In this document: one piece after another, positions 1,698-18,685 of the stretch
Position numbering within the stretch: the first letter of the stretch is position 1
Layout of the letters: each line of letters starts with the position of its first letter
NCBI GenBank assembly: GCA_018698675.1
Contig: JABIPA010000017.1
Location: forward strand, 1 to 43,154
Origin: a bacterium
GTDB lineage: Bacteria; Margulisbacteria; Marinamargulisbacteria; JABIPA01
DNA length: 43,154 nucleotides
Direction of reading: 5' to 3'
Made by a program: the position numbers and the translations under genes
Notes under the pieces: model-generated
What the model was told of the DNA's origin: nothing
Databases searched by the model: none
What the model saw: the letters and a program-made list of their open reading frames with translations, nothing else

Positions 1698-2834
1698 TTA
1701 CCTCTTTATAACTGAACGTAACGTATCTTCGATAATTGATGCGCTATCCAGAAGTTTAAAAGATTTCATCCGATTTATGAAATCATTCTTTTTAATAAGT
1801 CCTTCATTCAACAAAACTCGAACCGCTTCTTTTGTTAAATCCTTCTCTTCGATCATCATGCTCATTCCTTTTTTGACAAAAAAAGCAGCATTCGAAAGTT
1901 GCTCCCCTCGACTCGCATTTAATGATAAAGGAACCAAAATATGAACTTTCCGTGCCGCGAGTAACTCATATACGGAATTAGACCCAGATCTCGACACTAC
2001 GATGTCAGCCCACGCCAACGCGCTTCCAAAATCATCAATATATTCTTTTTGGACGTAATCATCCGATTTTTTAACCAATTCAGTCGTTTTCCCGGTCCCA
2101 CAAACATGTAAAATATTATAGTTGCTACTCAATTCATCGGAAAAACATTCAAAAAATAGGTTCAACAAAACAGAGCCTAACCCGCCTCCTACAATCAAAA
2201 GGTTCTGTTTCGATTTATATAAAGTGGTCTCTCGATTGGAAAAATATGAATGTATAAGAGAAACGTCAGACGTTTTAACCTTTTTTCGTAATGGCGTTCC
2301 AGACAATACTTTTTTTTCACTGACTAATCGGCATTGATTTAAAGCCTCTTCAAAAGTAAAGCAAAAACGTTTAACAAAAGGTTGCGATAACTTTGAAGTT
2401 AAGCCCATCGTCATATCGGATTCATGAGCAACCACAGGAATATTTAAAATCCATGCCGAAAAAACAACAGGAAAGCTTACAAAACCACCTTTAGAAAACA
2501 AGACCTGCGGCCGCAATTTAATTAAAAAGTAAAATGATTGAAGAATACCTACGCAAACATTAAAAACATCGAAAAAATTTTGAAAACTAAAGTATCGTCT
2601 TAACTTGCCTGAGCGAATAGAAAAATAAGATGAGAGTATTCCATTGTCTAAAAACTCCTGAACGAGGTCACGTTCGACGCCATTTTTAGATCCTATATAA
2701 AAAAATTCATAATCCTTAGATCCAAGTTTATCTGAAAAATGCTCGATTACGCCCAAATTAGGAGTCACATGTCCCGAGGAGCCTCCTCCTGTGAATGCAA
2801 TGATTAGTTTATCTATCGATTTTTTATAATACAT
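1698..2834 (-). CDS. murG: UDP-GlcNAc:lipid I N-acetylglucosaminyltransferase (MurG)
   Basis: MurG adds GlcNAc to undecaprenyl-pyrophosphoryl-MurNAc-pentapeptide (lipid I) at the inner face of the cytoplasmic membrane to make lipid II. The N-terminal glycine-rich loop GGGSSGHVTP (residues 16-25) matches the family GGTGGHxxP signature with some drift. The C-terminal nucleotide-sugar site SRSGSNSVYELLAARKVHILVPL followed by ASRGEQLSNA resembles the Firmicutes-type MurG branch. The 378-residue length is a little above the common 350-365. No other mur/fts genes flank it; instead bioB-bioD follow. It is divergent from the collar-protein operon. A related GT28 enzyme is possible, but MurG is the best call. 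Confidence 0.85.
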   Translation of the reverse strand: MYYKKSIDKLIIAFTGGGSSGHVTPNLGVIEHFSDKLGSKDYEFFYIGSKNGVERDLVQEFLDNGILSSYFSIRSGKLRRYFSFQNFFDVFNVCVGILQSFYFLIKLRPQVLFSKGGFVSFPVVFSAWILNIPVVAHESDMTMGLTSKLSQPFVKRFCFTFEEALNQCRLVSEKKVLSGTPLRKKVKTSDVSLIHSYFSNRETTLYKSKQNLLIVGGGLGSVLLNLFFECFSDELSSNYNILHVCGTGKTTELVKKSDDYVQKEYIDDFGSALAWADIVVSRSGSNSVYELLAARKVHILVPLSLNASRGEQLSNAAFFVKKGMSMMIEEKDLTKEAVRVLLNEGLIKKNDFINRMKSFKLLDSASIIEDTLRSVIKR

Positions 2835-2939
2835 AATTATTTTATTTTTACTCGATACTCTATAATAGAAGATAAATTGCTCAGTTGGATAGGTATATAT
2901 TTTTGTTCTGATAGTTAGAAATAAAGAAATAAATAGTAT

Positions 2940-2967
2940 TTACCTCATTTTCATATTAAATTATAAT
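2940..2967 (+). promoter_or_regulatory. Sigma-70-type promoter for the collar/HTTM operon
   Basis: TTACCT at 2940-2945 and a perfect TATAAT at 2962-2967 are separated by 16 bp. Initiation near 2974 would give a leader of about 50 nt to the ATG at 3026. This is the best promoter-like match in the 191-bp divergent spacer between murG and the operon. In such AT-rich DNA chance matches are common, so the call is moderate. Confidence 0.45.
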
Positions 2968-3025
2968 AAATTTTATTATCTATTTAATAAGTCATAAAAT
3001 CATTAACTTAGGATACGTATAACAC

Positions 3026-4030
3026 ATGCCAATTAAAAACAAATTAGACCCAGCAATAATTATAATTTCTATAGTTTTGTTAGGATCCATTTTTATTTTT
3101 GGGGCAGCTGAAGGTACAAACAAAGCCATGTTAAATAACAAAGTTATGACATTCACAAATGGGTCTGGTTTTACAGCTACAACATTAGAAATAATAGACT
3201 CGTCTTCAGGAGATATTTCTACAAAAGAATATATTCAAGCTACAACACGATTAATGATTGAAGGGGCTGTAATTGATACTTCTTTAAAAGCATTATCAAC
3301 AGGAATTGGCGATGGAGAATCTGCAATTAAAACTCACTACAACGGTATTTTTACAGGATCAGTAGTAGCATTTTCATATGCACCGGACCCGTCAACTGGT
3401 TGGTTACTCTGCGATGGCTCCGTTTTAACAACAAGTCCTACTGACTACAGCTCATTAATCGCCAAACTGGGAACTGCATGGGGAGCAACTGGGCAACTCC
3501 CAGACTTAAGAGGTCGCTATGTATTTGGTACAGCCGTAGGGGTGAGTGGTACTGACAGCTGGAGAATAAATGATGGTCACACAAGTGTAAATGACGTTGG
3601 TGCACATGAGCACAATGTAACATCAACGTCTTCGGGAGGTATAAATACAAGTTCTGATAGAATTGACGCCGGTTCCGGGTCTGGATCACATATTCACAAT
3701 GCGACGGGAATGGTTAATATGACCTCATTTGGAACTTTATTTAGAAAAGATGAGGCTTCTTCTCAATATCGTTCAAGCGGATCAAATTTAAATGCGGACT
3801 CATCTCACACCTATGGGTTCGGAGTTGCTACAACGGCAACAACTCGAACAGATTCTACAGGGTCTAACCTAAATAACTTAAGTCACACGCATTTTATTCC
3901 TCAAGACGAAATAGCGATACCTGCAGGGTCTCTAGGATCTACACCTGCATATTCTTCAGAAACTCGTCCTTTAAACGCTGCCGTTTACTTTTGCATTTAT
4001 TCGGGAGTTGGCGCTGATGTTGATCCATAA
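3026..4030 (+). CDS. Exported phage-tail-collar-domain protein, paralogue 1
   Basis: A 334-residue protein with an N-terminal hydrophobic anchor (about residues 10-27), then a box FTNGSGF at 43-49 shared with the next two proteins. The tail-collar domain follows: GSVVAFSY at 111-118, GWLLCDGS at 125-132, LPDLRGRYVFGT at 158-169. A His-rich, Ser/Gly-rich beta region carries HEH, HIH and HTH pairs, and the C-terminal ETRPLNAAVYFCIY is typical of tail-collar/MdpB-like proteins. Family members are phage fibre tips and poorly understood bacterial secreted proteins. No phage genes are nearby. It opens a five-gene operon, 13 bp before paralogue 2. Surface display is inferred; the role is unknown. 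Confidence 0.8.
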   Translation: MPIKNKLDPAIIIISIVLLGSIFIFGAAEGTNKAMLNNKVMTFTNGSGFTATTLEIIDSSSGDISTKEYIQATTRLMIEGAVIDTSLKALSTGIGDGESAIKTHYNGIFTGSVVAFSYAPDPSTGWLLCDGSVLTTSPTDYSSLIAKLGTAWGATGQLPDLRGRYVFGTAVGVSGTDSWRINDGHTSVNDVGAHEHNVTSTSSGGINTSSDRIDAGSGSGSHIHNATGMVNMTSFGTLFRKDEASSQYRSSGSNLNADSSHTYGFGVATTATTRTDSTGSNLNNLSHTHFIPQDEIAIPAGSLGSTPAYSSETRPLNAAVYFCIYSGVGADVDP

Positions 4031-4043
4031 AAATCAATGAATA

Positions 4044-5144
4044 ATGAAAGAAAAAATTACTATGATTAAACAAATATTAAACAAACCACTATTTCAATTA
4101 GCATTATTAATGATGTTCTTACCTTTATGTCTTTCTGTTATGGAAAAAACCTGGAAGATTTATGGAGTTGATGCTTATTTTAATAATGAATCATTTGTAT
4201 TTGATAATGGTTCTGGTTTCATAGAAACAGAAATACAAGAAACAGGATGCGCTGACTCTGCAACAAAAACGTGGATGCTTAAAGCAATACAAAACCTAAA
4301 ATTAGTTGATGGGACTGATCTAGCAGATATTTCAGGAAGCTCAGCTACATACCTTACAGAAGTTTGGACTGGCGCTATTATGCCTTTTGCCGGCCCAGTT
4401 GGTCCTGGATGGCTCATATGTGACGGAAGTGAGTACCCTGTAGGCCCAAATACAAACTGTAAATATAGAACATTATTTTCTAAGTTAGCAAATGGTGCTG
4501 ATTTCGATGCAGGAGGTGGAACTCCTCTTTGGGGAACTTCAGGTACAACTGGAAGTAGTTATGCCGACTATGAAGGTACTTTAAAAGTACCTGACTTAAG
4601 AGGATACTTTTTAAGAGGAAGCGATGCGACCTCATTGGTAAGTAACACAGCTGTCGGTAGAGATTCATCATATACACAACGTCATCTATCTCCAGATTTC
4701 AGTGCAAACGATAGTCTTGGAGAAAAACAAAAAACAACAAATCTTGCGACAGGAGATGTTATTCTAAATAGTAACAGCTTCCCAGTAGGTACTTATCAAG
4801 GATATACATATGGAAGTCATAGTGAGCATGAACTTGAAATACCCACTATGCCTTTGGGAAACTCAGACGCTATACATAATCATACATATAATCTCACAAA
4901 CTCCAACAAAACTGGTCCCGTTGGAAGCTGGTCAAATGTATGGGAAGACGATAACTATGTTTATAACAGAGGAAATATTACTACCCTTAACACCCCACTA
5001 ACATATATATCTGGCGGCACATCCACATTGGGAGTATCAACAACACATACACATACAATTACGCCGGATTTGTCAGTAACGAACAATGTCGAACTAGAAA
5101 CCCGTCCTAAGAACGCGTCAGTTTATTTCTATATAAAGTATTAA
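4044..5144 (+). CDS. Exported phage-tail-collar-domain protein, paralogue 2
   Basis: A 366-residue paralogue of the preceding protein. A hydrophobic N-terminal segment (about residues 15-32) is followed by the shared box FDNGSGF at 53-59, directly trailed by a Glu-rich stretch ETEIQETG. The collar domain shows AIMPFAGP, GWLICDGS near 123-130, LKVPDLRGYFLRG, several His pairs (HNH, HTHTH), and a C-terminal ETRPKNASVYFYI. An internal ATG six codons in (4062) is an alternative start that keeps the hydrophobic segment. It is 13 bp after paralogue 1 and 3 bp before paralogue 3. Tandem duplication followed by strong divergence is the simplest origin. Function unknown. Confidence 0.8.
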   Translation: MKEKITMIKQILNKPLFQLALLMMFLPLCLSVMEKTWKIYGVDAYFNNESFVFDNGSGFIETEIQETGCADSATKTWMLKAIQNLKLVDGTDLADISGSSATYLTEVWTGAIMPFAGPVGPGWLICDGSEYPVGPNTNCKYRTLFSKLANGADFDAGGGTPLWGTSGTTGSSYADYEGTLKVPDLRGYFLRGSDATSLVSNTAVGRDSSYTQRHLSPDFSANDSLGEKQKTTNLATGDVILNSNSFPVGTYQGYTYGSHSEHELEIPTMPLGNSDAIHNHTYNLTNSNKTGPVGSWSNVWEDDNYVYNRGNITTLNTPLTYISGGTSTLGVSTTHTHTITPDLSVTNNVELETRPKNASVYFYIKY

Positions 5145-5147
5145 ACT

Positions 5148-6134
5148 ATGAAAATAATAAATAAAACTCTTTTAATTACTATCATCTTTAAGCTAATCGT
5201 TATAGGTACTTCATTAAATGCTGAGACTAGCGGTGCAGGAACCTTTTCTAATGAAAAACTAGAATTCGTTAATGGATCATCTTTTACAGAAATTGAACAG
5301 TCCGGATCTTATTATATTAACGCCAGCACAGATATTGTTCTATCTGACGGAACTACCAAAGTTAGTGAATCGCTTGCCACCTTAGCTCCTTTTTTAGGAG
5401 CGATAGTTATGTACGCAAATACGACAACATCTACAATTTCCGGGTTAGATATTGCCAACTTTTCAAATGCTATATACATGAGCGTCATACCATGTGATGG
5501 AAGAGAAGTCACTGCAAATTGGTTTCCTGGTTTAAAAGAAATCGTGGGTACAAACTGGGGAACCCCTTTAGATTCTAATCGTTTCGTTGTCCCAGTTCTC
5601 GACAATTTTTACTTAAGAGGAGACGAATTATCTGGAGGCACGTTGCCAAATCCAGATCCCGCACGAGACATAAACTATGATACAAGAAATAGTTCTGTAA
5701 CCTTTGATGGTTCTACAAAATCAGGAGTGGGATCTTACCAAAATTATCAACTTCAAACACATAAACATTCCATGACTGGAACGACCATATCTACGGATGT
5801 AAACACGGCTACACATACTCATTCAACAGCCTCTGAAGTTTTCGTTGCAAGTACTGGTTCTGGACAAGCAGGAAGTAACGAAAATCAAAACTGGCCAATT
5901 ACAGTCTATCCAACGACGACATCTGGAGGGCAAACCATATCCTCAGAAGTAGAAGGAACTGATACATCAGTGCATTCACATAACCTTACTGACTTTCCAT
6001 CCAGCACGACGATTATTTCAACAGACTCTATTTCTGGAGGCGATGACCCGAAACTACAGTCTTTTGGGCTTACAATGTTTATTTTCGCTGGTCCTTATGA
6101 CGATGATGCCGTTAACGAAGAATTGGGTTTATAG
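5148..6134 (+). CDS. Exported tail-collar-like protein, paralogue 3 (diverged)
   Basis: A 328-residue protein with a signal peptide (hydrophobic about 7-22, cleavage plausible after the LNA at 23-25), then the shared box FVNGSSF at 40-46 followed by Glu-containing TEIEQSG. The collar core is recognisable but degraded: GAIVMYAN, SVIPCDGRE in place of GWLxCDGS, and FVVPVLDNFYLRG in place of VPDLRGxFLRG. His pairs HKH, HTH and HSH remain. The usual ETRPxN ending is replaced by LQSFGLTMFIFAG. It is the most divergent of the three and the closest in position to the HTTM genes, whose first start lies 18 bp downstream. Role unknown. Confidence 0.75.
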   Translation: MKIINKTLLITIIFKLIVIGTSLNAETSGAGTFSNEKLEFVNGSSFTEIEQSGSYYINASTDIVLSDGTTKVSESLATLAPFLGAIVMYANTTTSTISGLDIANFSNAIYMSVIPCDGREVTANWFPGLKEIVGTNWGTPLDSNRFVVPVLDNFYLRGDELSGGTLPNPDPARDINYDTRNSSVTFDGSTKSGVGSYQNYQLQTHKHSMTGTTISTDVNTATHTHSTASEVFVASTGSGQAGSNENQNWPITVYPTTTSGGQTISSEVEGTDTSVHSHNLTDFPSSTTIISTDSISGGDDPKLQSFGLTMFIFAGPYDDDAVNEELGL

Positions 6135-6152
6135 TCTTTACGTTTAATAGGC

Positions 6153-7493
6153 ATGTTACAGTTCTATAATTCAACATCTAAACTTCCTATAACATGGTTT
6201 CAATTTATTTTTGGACTATATTTTTCAATCTATAATTTTAAACATTTATACCTTAACTGGTTACCAGATCTATATACAAAACCAAATTTCCACTCTACAT
6301 ATCCTTTTTTTCCATTTCACCTATCGTTACCTTTGTTTCTACATATACTTCTTTATACAGTACTTATCAGCTGCGGACTTGGCATCGCATTCAATTATCG
6401 AGAAAAATTTTGTACTATCGTCGCTTTAAGTATTTCTATTTTTTACTTTGTATCTGATAGGCTTTATTATTCTGATTTTGCATACCTAAGTTTATTATTT
6501 CTTTTTTGTATATTGATCATCAATTGGGCTACTCATTCAGGAAACTCGGTTCCTATATGGAAGCTTCTGTTAATAAGGGCTCTATTTTGGACCGTCTCAT
6601 TTATATCTCTAATTCAATTAATGGGTAATGACTTTTTAGAAACATATGTATGGGTATCCCGAGTTGAAATATTTAAATTCCATTCATTTTTAAGTCAATT
6701 ATCTAACGTGTCGTTTGCAAAGTTTGGTGTTTATTTCATTATTATTTTATATAGCATTTGCTTAATATTTCTATTAACGAAAAAATTAAAAAAAACAGGA
6801 CTATTTTTATGGTTTATTCTTCAAATTAGTCTATATATACTTTTTTACAAATTCGAATTACAAGTTTCTCGATCCAACTTTCCAATACTAATGATAATAG
6901 GAAGCATCTCATTTATTGAAGAAGAGTGGGCGCTTTCTTTTAAGACTAAGATTCTAAATTGCCTTAAAAGAACAACTACACCAAATAAAAAAGAAATAAA
7001 ACTAGAAAAGTCTCAACAAGGTTTCAAAACAAAAAAACTAACAACGATTGGATTAATATGCCTTCTTCTATTTATGTCTATCCAAATACTTTTACCGCTA
7101 AGAGGTTACATTGTCGGTCATCGCGAAAGAGAATGGACAAATGCTCAGAATATTTTTTCTTGGCGAATGAAATTAAAACAGTTTTATTTCTATGGCCATT
7201 TATCTGTAAAAAATCCAGCCACAGGTCTTGTCGAAAATATTAGTATTTATGACTATCATTTGCCATCAGGTTCATTTCGAATGGGTTCTCCATACTCTAT
7301 ACTAAAATTTTCCCAATTTTTAGAAAAAAAATACAATGAAGCAGGGTATCCAAATGTAGAAATTTATGGATTTATTCTAGCCCGATTAAATAATGACACA
7401 GTCTATAAACCACTTATTAATTCAACTATTGATTTAACTAAAGTTAAGTATAACTATTTTTCTAAAAACGATTGGATTCTTCCTTATGATTAA
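6153..7493 (+). CDS. HTTM / vitamin K-dependent gamma-carboxylase-family membrane protein, probable pseudoenzyme
   Basis: A 446-residue protein with many membrane segments in its first two thirds and a soluble C-terminal part that contains the family motif around residues 309-335 (QILLPLRGYI, then WTNAQNIFSWRMKL; compare PLRxxL...WTxxGxxFSWRM in carboxylase relatives). Aligned by eye with the next gene, the segment that should hold the catalytic His reads YYSDFAYL (F109 in place of His) and the segment that should hold the catalytic Lys reads ISLIQLMG (Q155 in place of Lys). It may therefore be a non-catalytic partner of the overlapping downstream paralogue. The family is well supported by the C-terminal motif; the inactive status is inference. 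Confidence 0.7.
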   Translation: MLQFYNSTSKLPITWFQFIFGLYFSIYNFKHLYLNWLPDLYTKPNFHSTYPFFPFHLSLPLFLHILLYTVLISCGLGIAFNYREKFCTIVALSISIFYFVSDRLYYSDFAYLSLLFLFCILIINWATHSGNSVPIWKLLLIRALFWTVSFISLIQLMGNDFLETYVWVSRVEIFKFHSFLSQLSNVSFAKFGVYFIIILYSICLIFLLTKKLKKTGLFLWFILQISLYILFYKFELQVSRSNFPILMIIGSISFIEEEWALSFKTKILNCLKRTTTPNKKEIKLEKSQQGFKTKKLTTIGLICLLLFMSIQILLPLRGYIVGHREREWTNAQNIFSWRMKLKQFYFYGHLSVKNPATGLVENISIYDYHLPSGSFRMGSPYSILKFSQFLEKKYNEAGYPNVEIYGFILARLNNDTVYKPLINSTIDLTKVKYNYFSKNDWILPYD

Positions 7494-8862
7494 ATTAAAC
7501 GATTACGTTACTACAATTAAATCCAAATTAAATACAGACATAAATGGACTTTCATTAGCAATTTTTAGAATCGGATTTGGACTCATTTTAGGAATACAAG
7601 AAGGACTAGGAAGTCTTTTATACGATAAATTTTACACAGGATACATTTCCACTCTTTTCCATGCGCCCTACCCTAGTTTAAGCGCTATTACATTACCGTC
7701 ATCAATTTATACTGCCTATATCCTATATTTTATATTAATCCTTTCATGTTTATTTATAGCGCTAGGGTATCATTTCAAAATATCAAGCTTAGTATTTTTT
7801 GTAACATATACTTATTTTTTTCTATTAGATTATAACTTTTATAATAACCACTATTACTTAATTTGTTTATTTGGCCTTTTTCTCTTTCTATCCAATGCTC
7901 ATCACAAATTTTCAATAGATAGCCGTAAAAAAAATATAGAGTCTCCTAAACACTGGCATTTATTTCTTTTCCAATTTCAAGTGTGCATTATGTATTTTTA
8001 TGCAGGACTTGCAAAATTAACAAGTATAAACTGGTTAAACGCAGAACCTTTAAAATTATGGGTTAAAAACTTTCCAAAGGACCATCTATTTAACACTCTT
8101 TTTTCTAACGAATTTTCTGCTTATATGTTTAGCTATGCTGGATTACTCGTTGATTTATCATTACCATTTTTAATTCTATTCAAAAAAACTAGACATATAG
8201 GAATACTTTTAATGATTGGGTTTCATTCAATTAATTATTTTGTACTCTTTTCTCCATTAAATAATAACGTTATTGGGTCTTTTTCCGTTTTAGGGGTTCT
8301 AATTGCCATCTTATTTTTTGACGATTCGACTATTGAAAAATATATAAGTAAAATTCTAAATTCATTTTTGTTTAATAAATCAAAAAATATTGAAGTGGAA
8401 AAACAATCTATAGTTATCCCAATTTGTTTTTCATTATTTTTCATCATCCAATTTAGCATTCCTTTTCGATATCTATTAATTGATGGTAACTCAAATCCAA
8501 GATGGACAGAAATTGGACGAACCTTTTCTTGGATGGACTTCACTACATACAAAAGAAGCACATTGGATATAGAAATAGGAAAATTAAACGTACCTCCTAA
8601 AAAAGTTAATATTTCAAATGATCTTACTAAATTTCAACATCATATTGGAGGAATACCTTACTCGACACTTCAGCTTCTCAAAGTAAAAACTAAACAAGCT
8701 GAAAGTAGTGGAATAGATAATCCTCTCGGCTATGCAAAAGCAAACGTATCTCTAAACGGGCGAAACCATCGTCCTATAACAAATTCGTTTTTAAATTTAG
8801 ATAGAACAAATTGGACACCATTTTCTAATCAAATATGGATACGACAATATAGCGATTTATAG
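7486..8862 (+). CDS. HTTM / vitamin K-dependent gamma-carboxylase-family membrane enzyme
   Basis: A 458-residue multi-pass protein overlapping the preceding gene by 8 bp, so translation is likely coupled. YNNHYYL (H122) matches the NNHSYL region of human GGCX that holds H160, and YFYAGLAKLTSINWL (K177) matches the IAGxKKLDADW region that holds the catalytic base K218. The C-terminal part has IQFSIPFRYLL and WTEIGRTFSW, the family's PLR/WTxxGxxFSW element. In animals the enzyme carboxylates Glu to Gla using vitamin K hydroquinone; bacterial HTTM proteins are mostly uncharacterised. Last gene of the collar operon, 16 bp from the convergent GT-C gene. Family assignment is firm; reaction and substrates are inferred. 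Confidence 0.8.
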   Translation: MIKLNDYVTTIKSKLNTDINGLSLAIFRIGFGLILGIQEGLGSLLYDKFYTGYISTLFHAPYPSLSAITLPSSIYTAYILYFILILSCLFIALGYHFKISSLVFFVTYTYFFLLDYNFYNNHYYLICLFGLFLFLSNAHHKFSIDSRKKNIESPKHWHLFLFQFQVCIMYFYAGLAKLTSINWLNAEPLKLWVKNFPKDHLFNTLFSNEFSAYMFSYAGLLVDLSLPFLILFKKTRHIGILLMIGFHSINYFVLFSPLNNNVIGSFSVLGVLIAILFFDDSTIEKYISKILNSFLFNKSKNIEVEKQSIVIPICFSLFFIIQFSIPFRYLLIDGNSNPRWTEIGRTFSWMDFTTYKRSTLDIEIGKLNVPPKKVNISNDLTKFQHHIGGIPYSTLQLLKVKTKQAESSGIDNPLGYAKANVSLNGRNHRPITNSFLNLDRTNWTPFSNQIWIRQYSDL

Positions 8863-8878
8863 ACAAAGAAAACATCCA

Positions 8879-10792
8879 CTAATTCAAATAATACGTTTCG
8901 TAAATGTCAGGGTAAAAATTATTTAATCGAGTCAAAACAGCAGTCGCATTTTCTCTATCTCCAAAAGACATAAAGATGTTCTCTAAATTCATTATAGATC
9001 TAGGATTCGAATCTTCTGCCCAACTAAAAAGTATATTCGGTTTAGGTACAGAAATTAATCGGTGCCCGTATACGGACTTATTTAATAAAACTATTACATC
9101 CTTATTAAGATAGCCAATCCCCCACCCTCCTTTACTTAAGGCCCAGTTAATCAAAAACGGATTGGAGTAATCAAATACTGCAACCTTTGCTAAGGAAGCA
9201 ATCTGAGGCCAGGTAGAGGGCTTAGTATATGAGGGCATATACTCATTCAAAATATATGAAGAAGGATAAGCTTCCGAACGATTATCAATGATAGGCTTAG
9301 TGTTCGGGTAATTAGAAAATATTAAAAATGGTGCTAAGTGTGGAGCATTGTATACATGACTAGGATTCAGATCCTTAATATAGTTAACAAATTGAGCGGA
9401 TTCAGATGATAACCCAACACCATACTTTCTCCTAGTAGGAAAATCTAAGTTCGAACAGTATATAATCAAGACGATAGTCGAAAACAAAAAAGAAACCCAC
9501 AACCCTTTTTCTACTTTAAACGATTCTAAATGCAGTAAATGTTTAATCTTTACCCTATGCCCTAAAAAAGAACATCCAACATAAGTCATTGATTCACAAA
9601 AAAAGGGAAAAATCATAACAATGTATAAACTCGTATTTCTTATGCCCAACAAAACAAATCCAATCGAGAAAATTAACCAGATATTAATCGATAAATTCCT
9701 ACGTTTTAAATTCAAAACAAACAAAATAGTCGACAAGAAAAAGACGCATAAAAATGAATAATGCCTTGGATTTCCCATAAAAGACTTAAATAATGGAGAC
9801 ATATTATCTGCGCCTGGCATTGAATGATTTAAAAATATTAATAAAGGATAAAAAGCACCCTTAATTCCGTTTGGATTAATTAAACAAATGAAAAAAATTA
9901 CTGCCAATGAAAAAAAAACGATTCTAAATCGTGAAAATAATGAACCAAATCGAACAGAACCCGTCTTATTTTTCGAGCGCACGTCACCGATATAGCCCAT
10001 TTCAATAAATACCCATGTATAAAAAATTAGTGGACCTAAGAAAAAATATATATGAGTATTCGTCCAAATAAGTTGAATAAAGGGCAATGTCCAAAAGTAC
10101 CGAGGGAATCGTAGGCCAACAAAACCGTTATACCAGTCCTGACACGCTTGATTCCAATTCCTTAAAAATTGTCCATATTTATAGTTCTTTCCATGCTCAA
10201 TATCTACCGTACCTTCTTTGGGCCCTAATTTTTGAATAATTCCCTTTGTTTCCTGACCAAACAAAACCCACATAAACCATGAAACAAAAAGTAACGATAT
10301 CATTTCAGGACGAATCCCGGCTCTAGAGGTCAATAAAATGGCAGAAACAGGCACCAATGAAAAAACAATCTTTTTTGAACCCGATCTATAAATCGCCGTT
10401 TTTATCGATAGATAACACGATAATGTGATTACAATTGCTTTAAAAACAACTAACCCAGGAATATCAAAAATAGAATAGACCGAAAATAAAATTACTCCAA
10501 AAAACCAATGGTGATTTACAAAAGGAAAATCGAAATGAAACATTGAATACACATTTCTGTACAAAACAGAAATGTTTCCCTGAACAAGCTGCCTTCCGTT
10601 CTCCAAATGCCTTCCCAAATCAAGGTTATCAGATACCATATTCACTTCAAGAAGCTGAGAATAAAACAACCAAACTAACGAAAAAGATGCGCCGACGTAA
10701 AGAAAAAATAAAAAGGGATCCTTTTTAATAAAATTGAGGCAAAACAATAGAAATGACTTAAATAATTCAAACATAGAAATAAGATAACTCAA
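8879..10792 (-). CDS. Multi-pass membrane protein, GT-C-like
   Basis: A 637-residue protein with about 10-12 hydrophobic segments. An early periplasmic-loop sequence SDNLDLGRHLENGRQL, then NVYS and FVNHHWFFGV, resembles the D-x-WWHL-xxG ... YS ... W-xHHWL pattern of uncharacterised bacterial GT-C-fold (polyprenyl-phosphate-sugar-dependent) membrane proteins. A soluble C-terminal part (about 480-637) follows the last segments. It is transcribed towards the HTTM operon, with 16 bp between stop codons. Its 5' spacer to the flavoprotein gene is 161 bp, so it probably has its own promoter. Substrate cannot be told from sequence; membrane glycosyltransferase is a reasoned guess. Confidence 0.6.
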   Translation of the reverse strand: MSYLISMFELFKSFLLFCLNFIKKDPFLFFLYVGASFSLVWLFYSQLLEVNMVSDNLDLGRHLENGRQLVQGNISVLYRNVYSMFHFDFPFVNHHWFFGVILFSVYSIFDIPGLVVFKAIVITLSCYLSIKTAIYRSGSKKIVFSLVPVSAILLTSRAGIRPEMISLLFVSWFMWVLFGQETKGIIQKLGPKEGTVDIEHGKNYKYGQFLRNWNQACQDWYNGFVGLRFPRYFWTLPFIQLIWTNTHIYFFLGPLIFYTWVFIEMGYIGDVRSKNKTGSVRFGSLFSRFRIVFFSLAVIFFICLINPNGIKGAFYPLLIFLNHSMPGADNMSPLFKSFMGNPRHYSFLCVFFLSTILFVLNLKRRNLSINIWLIFSIGFVLLGIRNTSLYIVMIFPFFCESMTYVGCSFLGHRVKIKHLLHLESFKVEKGLWVSFLFSTIVLIIYCSNLDFPTRRKYGVGLSSESAQFVNYIKDLNPSHVYNAPHLAPFLIFSNYPNTKPIIDNRSEAYPSSYILNEYMPSYTKPSTWPQIASLAKVAVFDYSNPFLINWALSKGGWGIGYLNKDVIVLLNKSVYGHRLISVPKPNILFSWAEDSNPRSIMNLENIFMSFGDRENATAVLTRLNNFYPDIYETYYLN

Positions 10793-10953
10793 TAGAAAAA
10801 TCCCATAAAAAAATAAAACCTACCTAACAACCAAACCAACTATGGAAAAGTATATATTTTTCCAGATAAAAAGCATAAACTTTCACACCAATATGACAAT
10901 CACGTCTATTTGTGAATACAAACCATGAAAATATAAATACTAATCCAAAGCAT

Positions 10954-12090
10954 CTATTTAAAACGTGCTATATCAAATTTCTCACAAATTGAAGACCCAT
11001 TTAATATACTGTCCGAACATTGTTTCGCCAATAGAGGTGCGTATAAGGAGCCTTTTGAAGCCAACCCGTTAAACGTCCAAATGTTCGAGAATTTAGGGTG
11101 AGGCCCCATAACAGGTTTTGCGTCTTTCAATGTCGGTCTTACACCAGATTTAATAGAATCGACATCTATATCTAACAAATATTCTGTTTTAATAGATTCC
11201 CCTCTTATCCCTTTCTCAATTACATCATTGGCCCATTTCTTATAAATAAAATCTACGCCTTCGGTGCATATATTCGGGCCATCTTTTTTTAAATCACCAA
11301 GAGAAGAAATCGGAATGTAATTTGATCCAAAGATCCATTCATTTTCGCCACTCGGAACTAGCCATTGATTAAAAAAATGAATGTGCTCTCGAGATAGTCC
11401 AGGATCATTTTTAAACCTAAATTTCATTAACTCACCAAATGTACAAAACCAAGGAAGCCAAGAAAAAAAAGGGTTTGATACAGACTGCCATCCGTCGCAA
11501 AAAACCAATTTAGATTTCCCGATACTAGAATATCCATCCCTTCCCAAGTCATTCAAAAGCCCCGATAATTCCTTCTCGGACACTTTTTTAGACTCAATTT
11601 GATCAGACTCTTCAAAGTATATTCTCAACTTTTTTAAGAGTAATGATACATTCAATAAGGAACTAGACCCCGTTTCCAAACTTAAATAAGACGATTCAAA
11701 TGTGTCCCTTAATTTAAAATCATCAATACTACGTTCCTTATTAACTAAAAATGGAGAGACCTTTTTAACCTGTTTATTATTTAATGGAGTAAAAATATAT
11801 CGTTTAGAAAAAATAGGATTGAAAAATGAACAGTCGAGTAAAAGCTCTAATTCGCGATAAAGTTGAGAGGCATAAGAAAAAGCATTATCAAAATCAAAAA
11901 CGGAGCGAAGTCTAGATCCGAACAAAGGGTCTATTAGACCAGCAGAAACAATGGAACTTGATTTTTCATGAGAAGAATCAAATATGAGTACTTTTGCTCC
12001 CATCTTTTTTAAATGAAAGGCAAGCATCGATCCAGCTAATCCTTGACCGATGACTATAACATCAAACTGTCCAGAAAACAGTTCCTTCAT
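10954..12090 (-). CDS. DAO-family FAD-dependent oxidoreductase
   Basis: A 378-residue flavoprotein. The Rossmann FAD-binding motif VIVIGQGLAGSMLAFHL lies at residues 11-27, and a DAO-type C-terminus reads GVRPTLKDAKPVMGP followed by WTFNGLASKGSLYAPLLA. The family oxidises amines or amino acids (glycine oxidase, D-amino-acid oxidase, the C-terminal half of MnmC). The closest functional type cannot be settled. A free-standing MnmC2-like oxidoreductase is one option because GLASKGSLYAP resembles the GLGSRGL..AP ending of those enzymes. It starts 3 bp after the der stop codon, so the two share a transcript. Confidence 0.75.
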   Translation of the reverse strand: MKELFSGQFDVIVIGQGLAGSMLAFHLKKMGAKVLIFDSSHEKSSSIVSAGLIDPLFGSRLRSVFDFDNAFSYASQLYRELELLLDCSFFNPIFSKRYIFTPLNNKQVKKVSPFLVNKERSIDDFKLRDTFESSYLSLETGSSSLLNVSLLLKKLRIYFEESDQIESKKVSEKELSGLLNDLGRDGYSSIGKSKLVFCDGWQSVSNPFFSWLPWFCTFGELMKFRFKNDPGLSREHIHFFNQWLVPSGENEWIFGSNYIPISSLGDLKKDGPNICTEGVDFIYKKWANDVIEKGIRGESIKTEYLLDIDVDSIKSGVRPTLKDAKPVMGPHPKFSNIWTFNGLASKGSLYAPLLAKQCSDSILNGSSICEKFDIARFK

Positions 12091-12093
12091 AAT

Positions 12094-13704
12094 CTATCGT
12101 GGTTTTTGAGCAGACGCTCTAAAAATGATTTGAATAGGAATACCTTCAAAATGTTTATAAAACGTTCGAAACTGCTTTTCGATAAACCGTTCATAATTTG
12201 GAGGAATGTCGTCACCTTGATTCATAAAAAAGACAAATGTCGGTGGTGCAACACTTACTTGAGTCGCATACTTAACTTTCACTTTTTTACCCCGTTTTGT
12301 TGGAGGAGGATTCCGTTTAATAACATGTTCAATAAAGTCATTAAGTTCAGGAGTAGAAATACGAATTAAACTATTTTGAACAATTTTTGGAATTAAACCA
12401 AACATTTTTTTAATATTTCTATCTGTTTTCACTGCTCCAAAAATCTTTGGATAGTCTTTCAACTGAGGCATTAATTCTTCCATTTTTTGAATAAAATGGT
12501 CAGGTTCAAAAACAAATGGTTTAAAACCTAAGGCATCATACTCTTTGTTTTCAAAAACCTCTTCATAGTCTTCTTCAACAACTAATTCTGCACCTTCAGT
12601 TTTAGAACCTTTTATCGATTCCTTATTATTCCCTTTTTTGTGCCGAGAATCTCGTTTAGACATTTTTTTAGGCGTTTTATTTTTTTGCGTAAGTAATGAC
12701 TCAACATCTACACCAGAACGTTCTGCCATCAATTTTAAATCTTCAGCTTTTTCAACTTCAAGTCGATTAAACTCAGCAATTTCATCATCAAATAAATCTA
12801 TTTTGTTAATAAATAAAATTAAATTTTTCTTAGCATCTAATACCATTTGAATGATTCGTTTATCTTGTTCCGCCATCATTAAATTTGCATCCATCATGAC
12901 AATAACAATATCCGAACGACCAATACTCTTTTTAGTTCGCACTACGGAATAAAACTCTACACCTTGTGCATTTTTAGCTTTTTTTCTTATTCCAGCTGTA
13001 TCAATAATTTTATATGTTTTTCCATGATGCTTAAATTCAACTTCAACAGAATCTCGTGTAGTTCCGGCCACGTCATCAACAATAACGCGCTCATCTTCAA
13101 TAACAGCATTTAACAAGGACGATTTTCCTACATTAGGACGTCCAACAAACGATACCTTAAAATTATCAGGTTCTCTGTAATGAACATCTCTATCAAAATC
13201 TTCTGTACACCAATCCAATAAATCACCAATACCGATTCCATGTAACGAAGAAACTCCTAAAGGCTCCCCTAATCCAAGTGCATAAAACTCACTTAAATTA
13301 TGTAACATATCTGGATTGTCTACCTTATTAACAACAACTTTCACTTTATCTTTATGAACCCATAAAAGTTTAGCAATCGTCTTATCGATAACATGAAACC
13401 CAACTTTAAAGTCGGTAAGAAATATAATTTTAGTCGCTTGTTCAACATATGAACCAATTAAAGATTCAATTTTCGACTGCAAATAAATATTCTCAGAATC
13501 CTCTAAAAGTATCCCTCCACTATCTACTAAAAAAAACGGCTTCCCATTCCAGTCAGTTAAATATTCTAAACAATCCCTAGTAACACCAGGCATATCAAGA
13601 GTGATTAGCTCTTTTTTTCCAATAATTTTATTAATTAATGTTGATTTCCCAACATTAGGTCGGCCTAAAACTAGAACCTTAGCTAAATTTTTCATAAGGC
13701 TCAT
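12094..13704 (-). CDS. der: Double-domain ribosome-assembly GTPase Der (EngA) with a large insertion
   Basis: Der has two tandem G domains and a C-terminal KH-like domain and acts in 50S subunit maturation. G domain 1: P-loop GRPNVGKST (14-22), DSGG (61-64), NKVD (126-129). G domain 2: GRPNVGKSS (188-196), DTAG (235-238), NKID (300-303). The KH-like domain ends in the basic tail IIFRASAQKPR. At 536 residues it is some 50-100 longer than usual: between NKID at 300-303 and the G5-like segment around 421-430 there are about 120 residues instead of about 40. The extra part includes a Lys/Arg-rich stretch (KKMSKRDSRHKKG) and an acidic one (VVEEDYEEVFE). First gene of a der-flavoprotein operon. Confidence 0.95.
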   Translation of the reverse strand: MSLMKNLAKVLVLGRPNVGKSTLINKIIGKKELITLDMPGVTRDCLEYLTDWNGKPFFLVDSGGILLEDSENIYLQSKIESLIGSYVEQATKIIFLTDFKVGFHVIDKTIAKLLWVHKDKVKVVVNKVDNPDMLHNLSEFYALGLGEPLGVSSLHGIGIGDLLDWCTEDFDRDVHYREPDNFKVSFVGRPNVGKSSLLNAVIEDERVIVDDVAGTTRDSVEVEFKHHGKTYKIIDTAGIRKKAKNAQGVEFYSVVRTKKSIGRSDIVIVMMDANLMMAEQDKRIIQMVLDAKKNLILFINKIDLFDDEIAEFNRLEVEKAEDLKLMAERSGVDVESLLTQKNKTPKKMSKRDSRHKKGNNKESIKGSKTEGAELVVEEDYEEVFENKEYDALGFKPFVFEPDHFIQKMEELMPQLKDYPKIFGAVKTDRNIKKMFGLIPKIVQNSLIRISTPELNDFIEHVIKRNPPPTKRGKKVKVKYATQVSVAPPTFVFFMNQGDDIPPNYERFIEKQFRTFYKHFEGIPIQIIFRASAQKPR

Positions 13705-13909
13705 ATTCTACCAGATTACCTACAGTCTTACATCACACTTATTAAAATAAATTCACAAATAAAAGTGACACCCTCGTAAAAAATATAAAACATCGCATTT
13801 TTATAATCAAACCACACCAAAATATATGTCAAATTATGTTTAAATTCCTCATAAAAAGGGAATAGATATATTAAAAAATAAGATAAAAATTAAAATAATA
13901 AAAACTATT

Positions 13910-14338
13910 ATGACAACACAACTTAAAACGAAATCATTAGATATAAGAAATTTACAAAAGGTAACGAGGGACCGCCCGGAGCTTTCTGCCGCATATGCAC
14001 CTAATACTCCATTAAACAAAAAAAAAGAATATCAAACCGAATTTAAGGAAGCTATAGGTAGGCTCTTAAAACATCCAATGAAAATCATGTATATCATCGG
14101 TCATCCAAAAAACCCTGCTGCCTCCTCATTATTTTATATTCAAATAAGTAAAAATAGAATCATAATTGGTGGTAAAAAAAACAATCTCCCGGATAAAATT
14201 ACCTACTATTTGGACAATCATAGTTTGGAAAAAATGGGCCGACCAATTTCAGACGATAAAATTCCACTTTTTATTAAAAAATTAAACAAATGCCTTTCAT
14301 ACCCAAACGTAACTATGTTTGCAGGAGATAGAGAATGA
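13910..14338 (+). CDS. Small basic protein coupled to the 878-residue protein, unknown function
   Basis: A 142-residue, Lys/Asn-rich soluble protein with no signal peptide or membrane segment. It has a probably disordered first 45 residues and a compact-looking middle (LLKHPMKIMYIIGHPKN, then SLFYIQISKNRIIIGGKK) that suggests an alpha/beta or beta-rich fold. I do not recognise a family. Its stop overlaps the next start as ATGA at 14335-14338, a sign of translational coupling, so a chaperone, immunity or partner role for the large downstream protein is plausible. It does not look like the TPR-type chaperones that partner type III translocators. No Shine-Dalgarno sequence is obvious before the ATG. 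Divergent from der. Confidence 0.6.
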   Translation: MTTQLKTKSLDIRNLQKVTRDRPELSAAYAPNTPLNKKKEYQTEFKEAIGRLLKHPMKIMYIIGHPKNPAASSLFYIQISKNRIIIGGKKNNLPDKITYYLDNHSLEKMGRPISDDKIPLFIKKLNKCLSYPNVTMFAGDRE

Positions 14339-16971
14339 GTGTAACTAACCTCCCCCAACAAGGTGTTCGTTCGTCCACCGCAATAAAATCACCACCAAAA
14401 GGAATAGAACAAAAACAAGCAAGTTCAGTATCTTCCGAAGCAAAATTAACATCCGAATTAGGCGGAATCGGTAAACCCGAAACAGGAGTTGAATATCGCC
14501 CCGTCGACTTTAAAAGTGCCGAAGGAAAAAGTTTTCATAAAGGGCTATCAAATGCGATTACAAATTTATCAAACAAATCAAAACCTGAAAGTACTGAGGC
14601 TGCGGCTCCAAAAAGCGTACTTAAACAAGCCGGTGGCGTCGTTAAAAGTGGAATGAGTAAAGTATCTAAAGGAATCGATAAGTTCACGTCAGGGCCGGTT
14701 GGTACTACGATTGCAAAAACGTCTCATACCGGAGCTTTTACCATTAAAGGAGCTATAGGCGTCTTAGCTCAAGCAGGAGTCTCTGTGGCTGCTGCCCCAC
14801 TAGTTGCTGCGGCATGTATTGGAGTATTAGGTGGAATCATGGTAAAAGGTGGATTAAACGCAATAAAAGCTGCTACCGCCGATATTAATAAAGATATTAA
14901 TACCGTAAAAAAAGATACCATGAACCAAATCATGGAGAACAATTTCAATATATCTACCGGTGACGGAAAGTCAATTCCTTTATTTTCGATGGAGGAAAAC
15001 AGCGCTATATCTGACAATTTTATGTCAAATTTAAAAGAAAAAGGAATTCTTGGCGAAGGTGGTGTTCTAAACAAAGATGGTGCTTCGGTGAAAGGGAAAT
15101 CTCAATCAGAAATAAAAGCACTAATTACAGAATGTATGACAGATACATTAAATACAGCAATTGGAGATAACGCAGAGGTCCATGCCGACATGATTGAACA
15201 TATGTCAGAACAAATAGCAGTAGATACAATGTTAGATCTGGGTTGGGTTGAAGCACCTAAAGACGATCTAGGAGGACAAGTCCTGATTGACGTAATGAAA
15301 TCAGCAAACCTTCTTTCTAAAAGTACAGGTAGAATTAATTCAAACAGCGCAGATAACGTCAAAACAGCGATAACGAAAGTTTTAAAAGAATGTGAAAGCG
15401 ATGGAACACTGTCAGATAAACTTGATTCTTTAGGAATTCCAGAAGGAAACGCAGACGATGCATCACATGTACTTCTCCACAGGATGGGATTTATGGATTC
15501 TTCAGCATTAGCAGGCGCTGCCAAAAACTTAGACGGCGTATCACCTTCAAAACTTGACGACAAATTAAAACAAAAAGGAATTGTTTCTCAAGAAGGAACT
15601 CTAATGAAAGTCCCTTCCGAAGAAGAGCTTTGTGACATGTTTATTAGCTTAAACAATCCCTCAGCTTCCCCCTCTGAAAAAGAAGACATGATGAAAGATA
15701 TACTCACTGATGTAACGGTAACTCTAAATAAAACGCCCTTTGAAAAATTTAAAACTGAGATAACAACAAACGTTTTACCAAATAAAAAATCATTAACAAT
15801 GAAAAAAAATAAAGCGAGTACGGCAAACAAAGTAGCGATTGCAAATGGAGCAGGAACGTTAGGAGCAGGAGCTTTATTTTCTAGTGCAAGTGTTATTAGT
15901 GCACTTACTACAATCGGAACATTTACAGGGACCGCATTAGTCGGAGCAGGGACATTAGCTGCAGGACCTTTTGTTGCAATGGGTGCCGCAACTGTGGGTG
16001 GTGCTTGCGCTACTTATGGAGCTGTCAAAAATTGTAAAGCCGGGTATGTTTTAAAAGCCCAAGTAAAGGCGCTTGACAAACAAATGACTGCTATCGGCGA
16101 TGAAATAAAGCAATTAGACGTAGAAATAAAAGATCTTACAAATAATATTTCAGAACTTAAAGCCGAATTGGACCAATTAAATGCACAAGGGGGTAAACTT
16201 AAAGACAAAGAATTAAGTTTAAAAACGATGGCATTAGAGAAAAAAATTAGCGCAAGTGAATTGAAACTATCAACAAAAAAAATTGTTACGGCCAAAACAA
16301 AAATCAAATTAAAAAAAACGACCCTCAATAAAAAAATAACTACCATGAAAAAAGAACTCGCTTTCAAGCAAAGTAGAAAACTCGCTGCATTTGCGACAGC
16401 ATCTGCCCTTGCCGTTACAGCAGGCGTAATTACAATGACAGCGGCAGCTGCGGCATCTGCGGCTACCGGAGGATTAGCTGTTCCCGTTATAATGTTAGCG
16501 GCGGCGGCTTTTACCGGAGGAGGTGTGATCTCACACACGCAAGAGGGAAAACACCAGGACGGAATAAAAAAAGAAGATTCAAGTATGAAAACCCTAATGA
16601 GAGCAACAAAATTTGGAGACCAAATAAAGTCATTAGAAAATGAATTTAAAAATGGTGACATAAGCGAAGAAAATTTTGAGTTAACATTGAAATCCGTCTC
16701 TGAAAATATGGATTCAATCGAAAATGCCATTTCTCAAACCTCTTATGAATCAGAAACATATGGATTAATAAAAGAAGCATTTTCAGAAGCCAGTGATATG
16801 ATTCACGACGCAGCAACTACCCATGGTATAGAGGTTACAGATTTCAAATTATCAGAAAGCCAATCACCTCTTATAGACAGCGGAATATCAACAATTCTTG
16901 GAGAAAATAGTGAGGCTGGAGGCATTGAGGTTCAGCTTGATACACGCAATACATTAGTAGACGTCCAATAA
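14335..16971 (+). CDS. Large Ala/Gly-rich protein with glycine-zipper hydrophobic segments and a coiled coil, unknown function
   Basis: An 878-residue protein with no N-terminal signal peptide. Layout: disordered Ser/Lys-rich N-terminus (1-125); hydrophobic segment 1 (about 134-176); a soluble alpha-helical region (180-490) with what look like two or three degenerate repeats of roughly 80-90 residues; hydrophobic Gly/Ala-rich segment 2 (about 500-563); a long heptad-rich coiled coil (about 572-680); hydrophobic segment 3 (about 682-733); a soluble tail. Lack of a signal peptide with several small-residue-rich membrane-insertable helices and a coiled coil recalls pore-forming or translocator-type secreted proteins, but I see no sequence match to a named family. 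Coupled by ATGA to the small upstream gene. Confidence 0.65.
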   Translation: MSVTNLPQQGVRSSTAIKSPPKGIEQKQASSVSSEAKLTSELGGIGKPETGVEYRPVDFKSAEGKSFHKGLSNAITNLSNKSKPESTEAAAPKSVLKQAGGVVKSGMSKVSKGIDKFTSGPVGTTIAKTSHTGAFTIKGAIGVLAQAGVSVAAAPLVAAACIGVLGGIMVKGGLNAIKAATADINKDINTVKKDTMNQIMENNFNISTGDGKSIPLFSMEENSAISDNFMSNLKEKGILGEGGVLNKDGASVKGKSQSEIKALITECMTDTLNTAIGDNAEVHADMIEHMSEQIAVDTMLDLGWVEAPKDDLGGQVLIDVMKSANLLSKSTGRINSNSADNVKTAITKVLKECESDGTLSDKLDSLGIPEGNADDASHVLLHRMGFMDSSALAGAAKNLDGVSPSKLDDKLKQKGIVSQEGTLMKVPSEEELCDMFISLNNPSASPSEKEDMMKDILTDVTVTLNKTPFEKFKTEITTNVLPNKKSLTMKKNKASTANKVAIANGAGTLGAGALFSSASVISALTTIGTFTGTALVGAGTLAAGPFVAMGAATVGGACATYGAVKNCKAGYVLKAQVKALDKQMTAIGDEIKQLDVEIKDLTNNISELKAELDQLNAQGGKLKDKELSLKTMALEKKISASELKLSTKKIVTAKTKIKLKKTTLNKKITTMKKELAFKQSRKLAAFATASALAVTAGVITMTAAAAASAATGGLAVPVIMLAAAAFTGGGVISHTQEGKHQDGIKKEDSSMKTLMRATKFGDQIKSLENEFKNGDISEENFELTLKSVSENMDSIENAISQTSYESETYGLIKEAFSEASDMIHDAATTHGIEVTDFKLSESQSPLIDSGISTILGENSEAGGIEVQLDTRNTLVDVQ

Positions 16972-17065
16972 AAACAAACTAAAACGTAAAAATACCCCGA
17001 TTCTAAAAAAACCGAATTCTTTATTCTCCTCAAATTTGATTGACATGCGATGCTAAAATGAAAGA

Positions 17066-17182
17066 ATGAGTCAAAATTCAACAATAAAATTATTGTCCTC
17101 AAATTCAGGTTTTGAACAAGCCATACATATTCAAGAAGTTGTCTGGGAAAAAAAACCGTATCAATTCCATATTCAGTATTAA
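17066..17182 (+). CDS. Possible 38-residue small protein
   Basis: ATG at 17066 opens a 38-codon frame beginning MSQNSTIKLLSSNSGF and ending FHIQY before TAA. It lies 94 bp after the 878-residue gene, and no strong ribosome-binding site precedes it. A chance frame in AT-rich spacer DNA is the main alternative; it could also be the remnant of a longer gene. No function can be inferred. Confidence 0.2.
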   Translation: MSQNSTIKLLSSNSGFEQAIHIQEVVWEKKPYQFHIQY

Positions 17183-17344
17183 AGGCAGGTATCAAAATAT
17201 GAAAATAGGACAATCATTAAAAACATTTCAAAAAACCTTCTCTGCACAAAATTCCAACATTCCTTTTAACGACAATTAACAATTATTTCATTTTATAAGA
17301 ATATATAAAAAAATATAGCGGCCTATATATTAAATTAAGTTAAC

Positions 17345-17363
17345 TCTCTTTTGGTAAAAGAGA
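17345..17363. repeat. Short inverted repeat upstream of the MenC-like gene
   Basis: TCTCTTTT and AAAAGAGA form a perfect 8-bp stem around a 3-nt GGT loop, about 58 bp before the ATG at 17421. No T-run follows on the plus strand, so an operator or a leader hairpin is as likely as a terminator. Confidence 0.35.
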
Positions 17364-17420
17364 ATAAAACTATAAATAAAGCATTAAATATTAAAACAAA
17401 TATAATTCTGGAGAAAAATC

Positions 17421-18527: not shown

Positions 18528-18685
18528 CAAAAAGGACACCTTTACATACACAATTATTAGCCAATCCTGTCATGGAGATCGTCCTCAAGAAGGAAATAAT
18601 TAGATTAAAAAGAACCGCACAAAGAATTATACTTATCAAAAATTCAATTTTAAGGATAAACTAAATTTAAGTTGAAGGAGCTTTT

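What the first reader, a model, noticed from the sequence alone, without database searches (positions are those of the whole stretch)
3026..8862. Five-gene operon pairing three exported collar proteins with two gamma-carboxylase-family membrane proteins
Three tandem tail-collar paralogues (13- and 3-bp gaps) are followed within 18 bp by two overlapping HTTM/VKG-carboxylase paralogues. Seen: spacing, signal or anchor segments, collar and HTTM motifs. Known: animal members of the HTTM family carboxylate Glu on secreted proteins using vitamin K hydroquinone, and the function of most bacterial members is unknown. Inference: the collar proteins are the dedicated substrates of the HTTM pair, giving metal-binding Gla or another modified residues on secreted fibre-like proteins. 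I know of no described system with this composition.
Basis: partly seen in the sequence, partly recalled or inferred. Interest (0 to 1): 0.85.

Follow-up and report, generated by a model that had tools for sequence, protein, structure and literature searches.

The report
Split vitamin-K carboxylase beside exported fibres
An uncultured bacterium carries three genes for predicted exported, phage-fibre-like proteins directly followed by two relatives of the animal vitamin K carboxylase, one keeping the active-site residues and the other keeping a conserved linker that the first has lost, so the two are predicted to work as one two-part enzyme that would likely modify the fibre-like proteins.

Summary
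The same block (three collar proteins plus an HTTM pair) occurs in two genera of another family of the class, with different flanking genes; a sister species carries it split over two contigs. So the neighbourhood is real.

New here: the two HTTM proteins are not two carboxylases. In 4 of 4 pairs one member keeps the GGCX active site (N159, H160, K218) but has lost the TM-to-lumen linker residues at GGCX 401-402, and in one genus its whole lumenal domain. The other has lost the active site but keeps that linker and the lumenal domain. Unpaired relatives keep both. Best reading: an obligate two-subunit vitamin K-type carboxylase whose likely substrates are the collars.

MenA, MenB and a haem-copper oxidase are present. 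VKOR was not found, the collars show no Gla-type Glu cluster, one collar triad has no HTTM beside it, and the match to the animal propeptide-binding domain is only partial. Carboxylation and the collar-substrate link remain inference. New variant of a known kind.

The parts
3026..4030 (+). collar protein c1 (334 aa): hydrophobic N-terminal segment, N-domain, tail-collar domain, variable C-terminal part
   Evidence: Pfam Collar 40.9 bits; sister-species orthologue 85% identical in residues 36-90 (N-domain) and 36% in residues 166-300
4044..5144 (+). collar protein c2 (366 aa)
   Evidence: Pfam Collar 24.5 bits, just over the cut-off of 24
5148..6134 (+). collar protein c3 (328 aa), degenerate collar domain
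   Evidence: Collar 14.5 bits, below the cut-off; N-domain match 52.7 bits, itself a row of the profile; in the sister species the end of c3 lies 17 bp before H1
3125..3289 (+). N-domain of c1, candidate docking element
   Evidence: Phe invariant in 14 of 14 rows of A3
4173..4337 (+). N-domain of c2
5241..5381 (+). N-domain of c3
6153..7493 (+). H1: HTTM/VKGC-family partner subunit (446 aa) without the catalytic residues
   Evidence: VKGC lumenal 85.3 bits, HTTM 20.6 bits; model pLDDT 82.9, 16 of 16 PDB hits at E<=0.001 are GGCX; dN/dS 0.126 with dS near saturation
7047..7490 (+). VKGC lumenal domain of H1
7161..7172 (+). H1 linker W-R-M-K (GGCX 399-402 equivalent), intact
7486..8862 (+). H2: HTTM/VKGC catalytic subunit (458 aa)
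   Evidence: HTTM 171.1 bits, lumenal 58.4 bits; GGCX E 1.4e-23
7849..7851 (+). H2 His122 (GGCX H160 equivalent)
8014..8016 (+). H2 Lys177 (GGCX K218 catalytic-base equivalent)
8530..8541 (+). H2 linker W-M-D-F, broken at the GGCX 401-402 positions
8419..8847 (+). VKGC lumenal domain of H2, weaker match
2939..2967 (+). best promoter-like site upstream of c1 (10 of 12); 25 such sites in the scanned stretch against 30.4 expected by chance, so weak

Best explanation
The block encodes three collar-family proteins and two relatives of the animal vitamin K-dependent carboxylase (H2 with the catalytic residues, H1 with the intact linker and the stronger lumenal-domain match) that are predicted to form one enzyme and likely modify the collar proteins during their predicted export. 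Shown: gene order; recurrence of the block in three genera; complementary loss of catalytic and linker/lumenal features in the pair; presence of MenA, MenB and a haem-copper oxidase. Inferred: H1 and H2 form a heterodimer in which H2 deprotonates reduced menaquinone with Lys177 and holds a Glu near Asn121/His122, while H1 supplies the linker and the lumenal domain that holds the substrate; the hold is likely on the conserved N-domain of the collars (invariant Phe), by loose analogy with the GGCX propeptide; the product is likely gamma-carboxy-Glu on one or a few residues; the collars would then act as metal-binding, surface-exposed fibre-like proteins with a variable C-terminal part.
For: Block in G000, G015 and G017, and in G001 across a contig gap; outer flanks differ: glycosyltransferase-28 gene, rpoN-like gene, lnt-like gene (the last two named by eye). 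Catalytic columns N159, H160, K218, W223, D263, F286 intact in the catalytic member of 4 of 4 pairs; N159, H160 and K218 lost in 4 of 4 partners; linker 401-402 is D-F, D-F, N-A, S-H in the catalytic members but M-K in 4 of 4 partners (one search agrees except that it aligns gaps there for G017 H2). Single HTTMs with a lumenal domain (G004, G010, G018) and GGCX keep both; the G013 HTTM was not aligned. In 118 homologues N159, H160 and K218 are 118 of 118, and position 401 is V (102) or M (16) (the best listed hits to H2, 118 of 502). G017's catalytic member is 349 aa, the 3' end of a convergent gene lies 2 bp after its stop, and it has no lumenal match; its partner has lost the N-terminal membrane half. 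Partners form one clade, 95/92. H1 dN/dS 0.126. H1 model matches only GGCX at E<=0.001. MenA/MenB over NCBIfam cut-offs in G000 and G015, and haem O synthase in G000; UbiA family 8 of 8 and COX1 8 of 8 genomes. The roles of K218, N159, H160 and M401 and of the propeptide groove are from PMC12589487 (parts 1 and 2 of 3 read).
Against: VKOR not found in G000, G001, G015, G016, G017. No Glu cluster of Gla-domain type seen in the collars; Glu 2.2-4.7% in linked collars; the unlinked triad of G017 has less (0.4-1.3%) but G011, with no HTTM found, has 4.9 and 10.2%. The G017:C3 triad has no HTTM beside it and bears the N-domain too, so the N-domain is not tied to a neighbouring HTTM. GGCX Y395 and R436 are not conserved and K217 is absent in all 11 phylum proteins aligned. 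H2 aligns to GGCX only up to about residue 503, while the propeptide-binding domain has named residues up to T591 (PMC12589487), so the animal groove is only partly matched. Partner clade rests on long branches, and the catalytic members do not come out as one clade. H2 still has a detectable lumenal domain in g1. No interaction or product has been seen.
Confidence: 0.5

Rival explanations
1. H1 is a decaying duplicate; H2 alone is a normal one-chain carboxylase-like enzyme, and the pairing carries no meaning.
For: H1 lacks the active site and evolves faster than H2 (63% against 76% identity to the sister species; dN 0.233 against 0.155).
Against: H1-type partners kept in 4 of 4 pairs and form one clade; H1 dN/dS 0.126; the catalytic member has itself lost its linker residues in 4 of 4 pairs and its lumenal domain in G017, which a stand-alone enzyme should not.
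Confidence: 0.15
2. The pair is a two-part carboxylase-type enzyme, but its substrate is another exported protein and the collars are only co-transcribed.
For: No Glu-rich stretch in the collars; a collar triad without HTTM beside it exists in G017, and G011 has collars but no HTTM found. Single HTTMs of the phylum sit elsewhere: in G018 after a giant repeat protein, in G004 against two large proteins with export-type N-termini, in G010 with no such neighbour (by eye).
Against: All pairs found (4 of 4, 3 genera; one across a contig gap) are directly behind collar genes while outer flanks differ, and single HTTMs with a lumenal domain are not beside a triad (0 of 3).
Confidence: 0.2
3. The pair no longer carboxylates; it is a membrane assembly or quinone-linked factor for collar export or trimerisation, or carries out different hydroquinone/oxygen chemistry.
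Against: N159, H160 and K218 are kept in every catalytic member aligned and in 118 of 118 homologues, which is hard to explain without the base-driven chemistry.
Confidence: 0.25

Closest known systems
Vitamin K-dependent gamma-glutamyl carboxylase GGCX (animals)
   Same: Fold of H1 (Foldseek, 16 of 16 hits at E<=0.001 are GGCX), sequence of H2 (E about 1e-23), N159/H160/K218 in H2, linker and lumenal domain in H1
   Different: One chain in animals, two here with the functions divided; substrates are collar proteins by inference, not Gla-domain proteins; no VKOR found; H2 aligns only to about GGCX residue 503, so the distal propeptide-binding domain and the Arch-like domain described in PMC12589487 are not seen
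Single-chain bacterial HTTM/VKGC proteins (P0003-P0120; the named ones mostly Bacteroidota)
   Same: Length mostly about 450 aa, HTTM plus lumenal domain, catalytic residues
   Different: Keep catalytic residues and linker in one chain; the eight loci outside the phylum that I scanned have no collar hit, and one lies among imelysin-like and di-haem-oxidase-like genes (named by eye)
Phage tail-collar / tail fibre proteins (Pfam PF07484; PHROG 327, 523)
   Same: Collar domain; C-terminal E-T-R-P-x-N motif of c1 is shared by more distant collar proteins
   Different: Hydrophobic export-type N-terminus and a distinct N-domain; no phage genes seen around (by eye); c1 has only two close relatives in the protein search, about 56% identical, one on the sister species' contig, and three weak ones

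Membership tests
VKGC / GGCX family (PF22777 + PF05090) | GGCX fold with HTTM and lumenal domain | tested here: met
   H2 by sequence and Pfam (no model was made of H2); H1 by lumenal domain and model; HTTM of H1 is below the Pfam cut-off
VKGC / GGCX family (PF22777 + PF05090) | Catalytic Lys218, His160, Asn159 in the same chain as an intact linker and lumenal domain | tested here: not met
   Divided between two chains in 4 of 4 pairs; so filed as a variant, not as an ordinary single-chain member
VKGC / GGCX family (PF22777 + PF05090) | Reduced vitamin K (menaquinone) and oxygen available | tested here: met
   By genes only: MenA, MenB in G000 and G015, haem O synthase in G000; COX1 in 8 of 8 genomes. 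MenA not identified in G017 itself
VKGC / GGCX family (PF22777 + PF05090) | VKOR-type recycling of the epoxide | tested here: not met
   PF07884 no match in G000, G001, G015, G016, G017; genomes are 83-91% complete
VKGC / GGCX family (PF22777 + PF05090) | Substrate with a recognition element followed by clustered Glu | tested here: inconclusive
   Shared N-domain with invariant Phe but no Glu cluster seen
VKGC / GGCX family (PF22777 + PF05090) | Makes gamma-carboxyglutamate | not testable with these tools
   needs biochemistry
Phage tail-collar proteins (PF07484) | Collar domain over the curated cut-off | tested here: met
   c1 and c2 yes, c3 no
Phage tail-collar proteins (PF07484) | Part of a phage or phage-tail gene cluster | tested here: not met
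   Neighbours look like housekeeping genes in G000, G015, G017 (read by eye apart from the Pfam hits)

The most novel reading that the evidence does not exclude
A two-subunit vitamin K-dependent carboxylase, in which one chain supplies the active site and a catalytically dead paralogue supplies the active-site linker and the substrate-holding domain in trans, dedicated to three bacterial collar-fibre proteins of the cell surface: it would be the first divided VKGC and the first bacterial VKGC with its substrates encoded beside it.
Probability: 0.42. Interest if true: 0.87.

Novelty: new variant of a known kind. Interest (0 to 1): 0.72.

Why it matters
Here the substrate candidates are encoded in the same block, three at a time, and the block recurs with different flanks. 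The divided enzyme would also give a natural dissection of GGCX: it separates the base chemistry (H2) from the linker and lumenal domain (H1), so the contribution of each could be tested by adding or leaving out one subunit. If Gla is found on the collars it would be a bacterial route to metal-binding secreted fibres.

Tried and rejected
Propeptide-like motif exclusive to HTTM-linked proteins: rejected. The N-domain profile finds 16 places in 6 of 27 class genomes; 15 are collars of triads (14 of them rows of the profile), among them the unlinked G017:C3 triad and the two G011 collars, and one is an 855-aa frame in G008, a genome without an HTTM match. Two large G004 proteins beside a single HTTM look alike at the N-terminus by eye but do not reach E 0.01.

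Gla-domain-like Glu clusters in collars: none seen. Glu against Asp in linked and unlinked G017 triads: 23:41 against 7:36, Fisher p 0.03, one genome, and contradicted by the Glu-rich G011 collars; I give it little weight.

Collar structure: the AlphaFold model of c1 failed (pLDDT 30.9) and was not searched. Fold search of H1 among viral proteins gave 0 matches at E 0.001 or better. H2 was not modelled.

Other dead partners: the protein search with H1 gave 9 proteins, own and sister sequences included; the other 7 all keep K218. It did not list the G015 and G017 partners, so it misses distant ones.

Collar next to HTTM outside the phylum: 12 of 383 genomes carry PF22777, 5 of them outside the phylum; none of their 8 loci, nor 2 contigs of the viral collection, has a collar hit at E 0.01 (several loci end at contig ends). 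Some G146 copies lie at contig ends or look frameshifted; I do not count them as split enzymes. No phage record matches H2 at E 0.001; 5 plasmid records do at 22-29% identity and their neighbourhoods were not read.

Phage origin of the block: c1 matches 37 phage records weakly (best E listed 8e-6) and no phage genes were seen beside it.

Literature: (listings, cut at 20 of 148, 15 of 3,117 and 10 of 190) showed no described collar-HTTM system or divided VKGC; only open-licence PubMed Central papers are held, so absence from print is not shown.

Full report
Observation. The five ORFs lie at 3026-4030, 4044-5144, 5148-6134, 6153-7493 and 7486-8862 on the + strand. No terminator-like site was found on the + strand in 2600-9200, which fits one transcript. 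Pfam finds Collar in c1 (40.9 bits) and c2 (24.5, cut-off 24) and weakly in c3 (14.5), and the VKGC lumenal domain in H1 (85.3) and H2 (58.4); HTTM is strong in H2 (171) and below its cut-off in H1 (20.6).

Is the neighbourhood conserved? PF22777 occurs in 7 of 74 genomes of the phylum, HTTM in 9 of 74, Collar over its cut-off in 7 of 74. Reading the neighbourhoods, G015 and G017 (two genera of another family of the class) carry three collar genes followed at once by two HTTM/VKGC genes. The sister species G001 has collar 1 at the end of one contig and the end of collar 3 plus H1 and H2 at the start of another, 17 bp between c3 and H1; I infer one operon across the gap, collar 2 not being seen. 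G016, of the genus of G017, has only an HTTM fragment at a contig edge in the same place as in G017. Outer flanks differ between the three genera. The order of the pair also differs: partner then catalytic in G000, G001 and G017, catalytic then partner in G015. The other three carriers of PF22777 (G004, G010, G018) have one HTTM each and no collar hit in the stretches fetched; nor has the G013 HTTM, which has no PF22777 match.

Are triads always with HTTM? No. The N-domain profile (48 positions) found 16 places in 6 of 27 class genomes. Fifteen are triad collars, 14 of which were rows of the profile: G000 3, G001 1, G015 3, G017 6 (two triads), G011 2. Triads beside an HTTM pair: G000, G001 (across the gap), G015, G017:C4. 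G017:C3 has none beside it. G011 stops at a contig end after collar 2 and no HTTM was found in that genome.

The pair is divided. I aligned 11 phylum HTTMs with the GGCX stretches printed, and again with 129 proteins of the searches. In window H2, G001 H2, G017 H2 and G015 Ha the residues at GGCX 158-160 (N-N-H), K218, W223, D263, F286, H287 and N290 are intact. In window H1, G001 H1, G017 H1 and G015 Hb N159, H160 and K218 are all lost. At the TM-to-lumen linker (399-402) the picture is reversed: partners read W-R-M-K, W-R-M-K, W-R-M-K, W-S-M-K; the catalytic members read W-M-D-F, W-M-D-F, W-I-N-A, W-N-S-H (for G017 H2 one search aligns gaps at 401-402). The singles G018, G010, G004 and GGCX have both sets (G004 with N in place of H287). 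In 118 homologues of H2 (the best listed of 502, own and sister sequences left out), N159, H160, K218, W223, D263 and F286 are 118 of 118, 401 is V (102) or M (16), and 402 is M (109), K (7), L (1) or I (1). The lumenal domain follows the same split: over the cut-off in all four partners, weaker in H2 of g1, not detected in G015 Ha, and absent in G017 H2, where the 3' end of a convergent gene lies 2 bp after its stop. In PMC12589487 (parts 1 and 2 of 3 read) K218 is the base, N159 and H160 hold the Glu, M401 lies in the wall between the Glu and vitamin K pockets, and the lumenal lobes clamp the propeptide. So each pair holds two half-enzymes that add up to one. A limit of the analogy: H2 aligns to GGCX only to about residue 503, short of propeptide-binding-domain residues such as T591 named in that paper.

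Not decay. H1 has dN 0.233, dS 1.848, ratio 0.126 against its sister orthologue; H2 0.087; dS is near saturation. The lumenal half of H1 is better kept (73%) than its membrane half (60%). The partners form one clade (95/92) in a tree of 37 rows, with a warning about long branches; the catalytic members do not form one clade, two singles falling among them in an unresolved fork. One old division is likely but not proven. The H1 model (25 rows, pLDDT 82.9, pTM 0.85) matches GGCX in all 16 PDB hits at E 0.001 or better.

Collars. Between the two g1 species c1 is 85% identical in residues 36-90 (N-domain), 71% in 105-165 (collar) and 36% in 166-300: a fixed base and a fast-changing outer part. An invariant Phe and Gly mark the N-domain in 14 of 14 rows. 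No Glu cluster was seen. The c1 model failed.

Chemistry available? MenA and MenB pass NCBIfam cut-offs in G000 and G015, and haem O synthase in G000; UbiA-family genes are in 8 of 8 genomes and COX1 in 8 of 8 (the family also holds nitric oxide reductases, recalled); cytochrome bd in 0 of 8. VKOR passes its cut-off in 10 of 74 genomes but in none of those with the block; how an epoxide would be reduced is open.

Elsewhere. Of 383 genomes searched, 12 carry PF22777, 5 of them outside the phylum; a profile of the collars finds none in their 8 loci at E 0.01. Within what I searched, the link is confined to this class.

Verdict. What is shown is genomic. That collars are substrates (about 0.6) and that the product is Gla (about 0.5) are inferences.

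Noticed in passing
window 41898-42998 (-): Fibre-like protein at the window's end whose C-terminus looks like that of the 3738-aa giant protein before the single HTTM in L014 (by eye).
   Followed up: no
L075 (G000:C38:70000-89999) 6132-20000 (-): Giant repeat protein (open frame 5446 aa) of the window's own genome that ends in a collar-like domain (17.7 bits, below the cut-off).
   Followed up: partly
L070 8173-10679 (-): Second collar triad of G017 with the same N-domain, without an HTTM gene beside it and with less Glu.
   Followed up: partly
L114, L115, L116 (G146): Several tandem or frameshifted HTTM/VKGC copies, some at contig ends, in a genome of another phylum.
   Followed up: partly
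L117 4598-10320 (+): HTTM/VKGC gene in a row with imelysin-like and di-haem-oxidase-like genes (named by eye), a quite different neighbourhood for the family.
   Followed up: no
L016 9600-14085 (+) and L015 11267-13360 (-): Large proteins just past the block in G015 and G017; the first of the two G015 ones and the G017 one share a weakly similar C-terminal part (E 4e-7).
   Followed up: partly
L138 708-2018 (+): A contig in a viral collection carries a single-chain HTTM/VKGC gene with N-N-H; the contig may be bacterial rather than viral.
   Followed up: no
window 14335-16971 (+): 878-aa protein with long hydrophobic and coiled-looking stretches directly after a 142-aa gene; function not looked at.
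   Followed up: no
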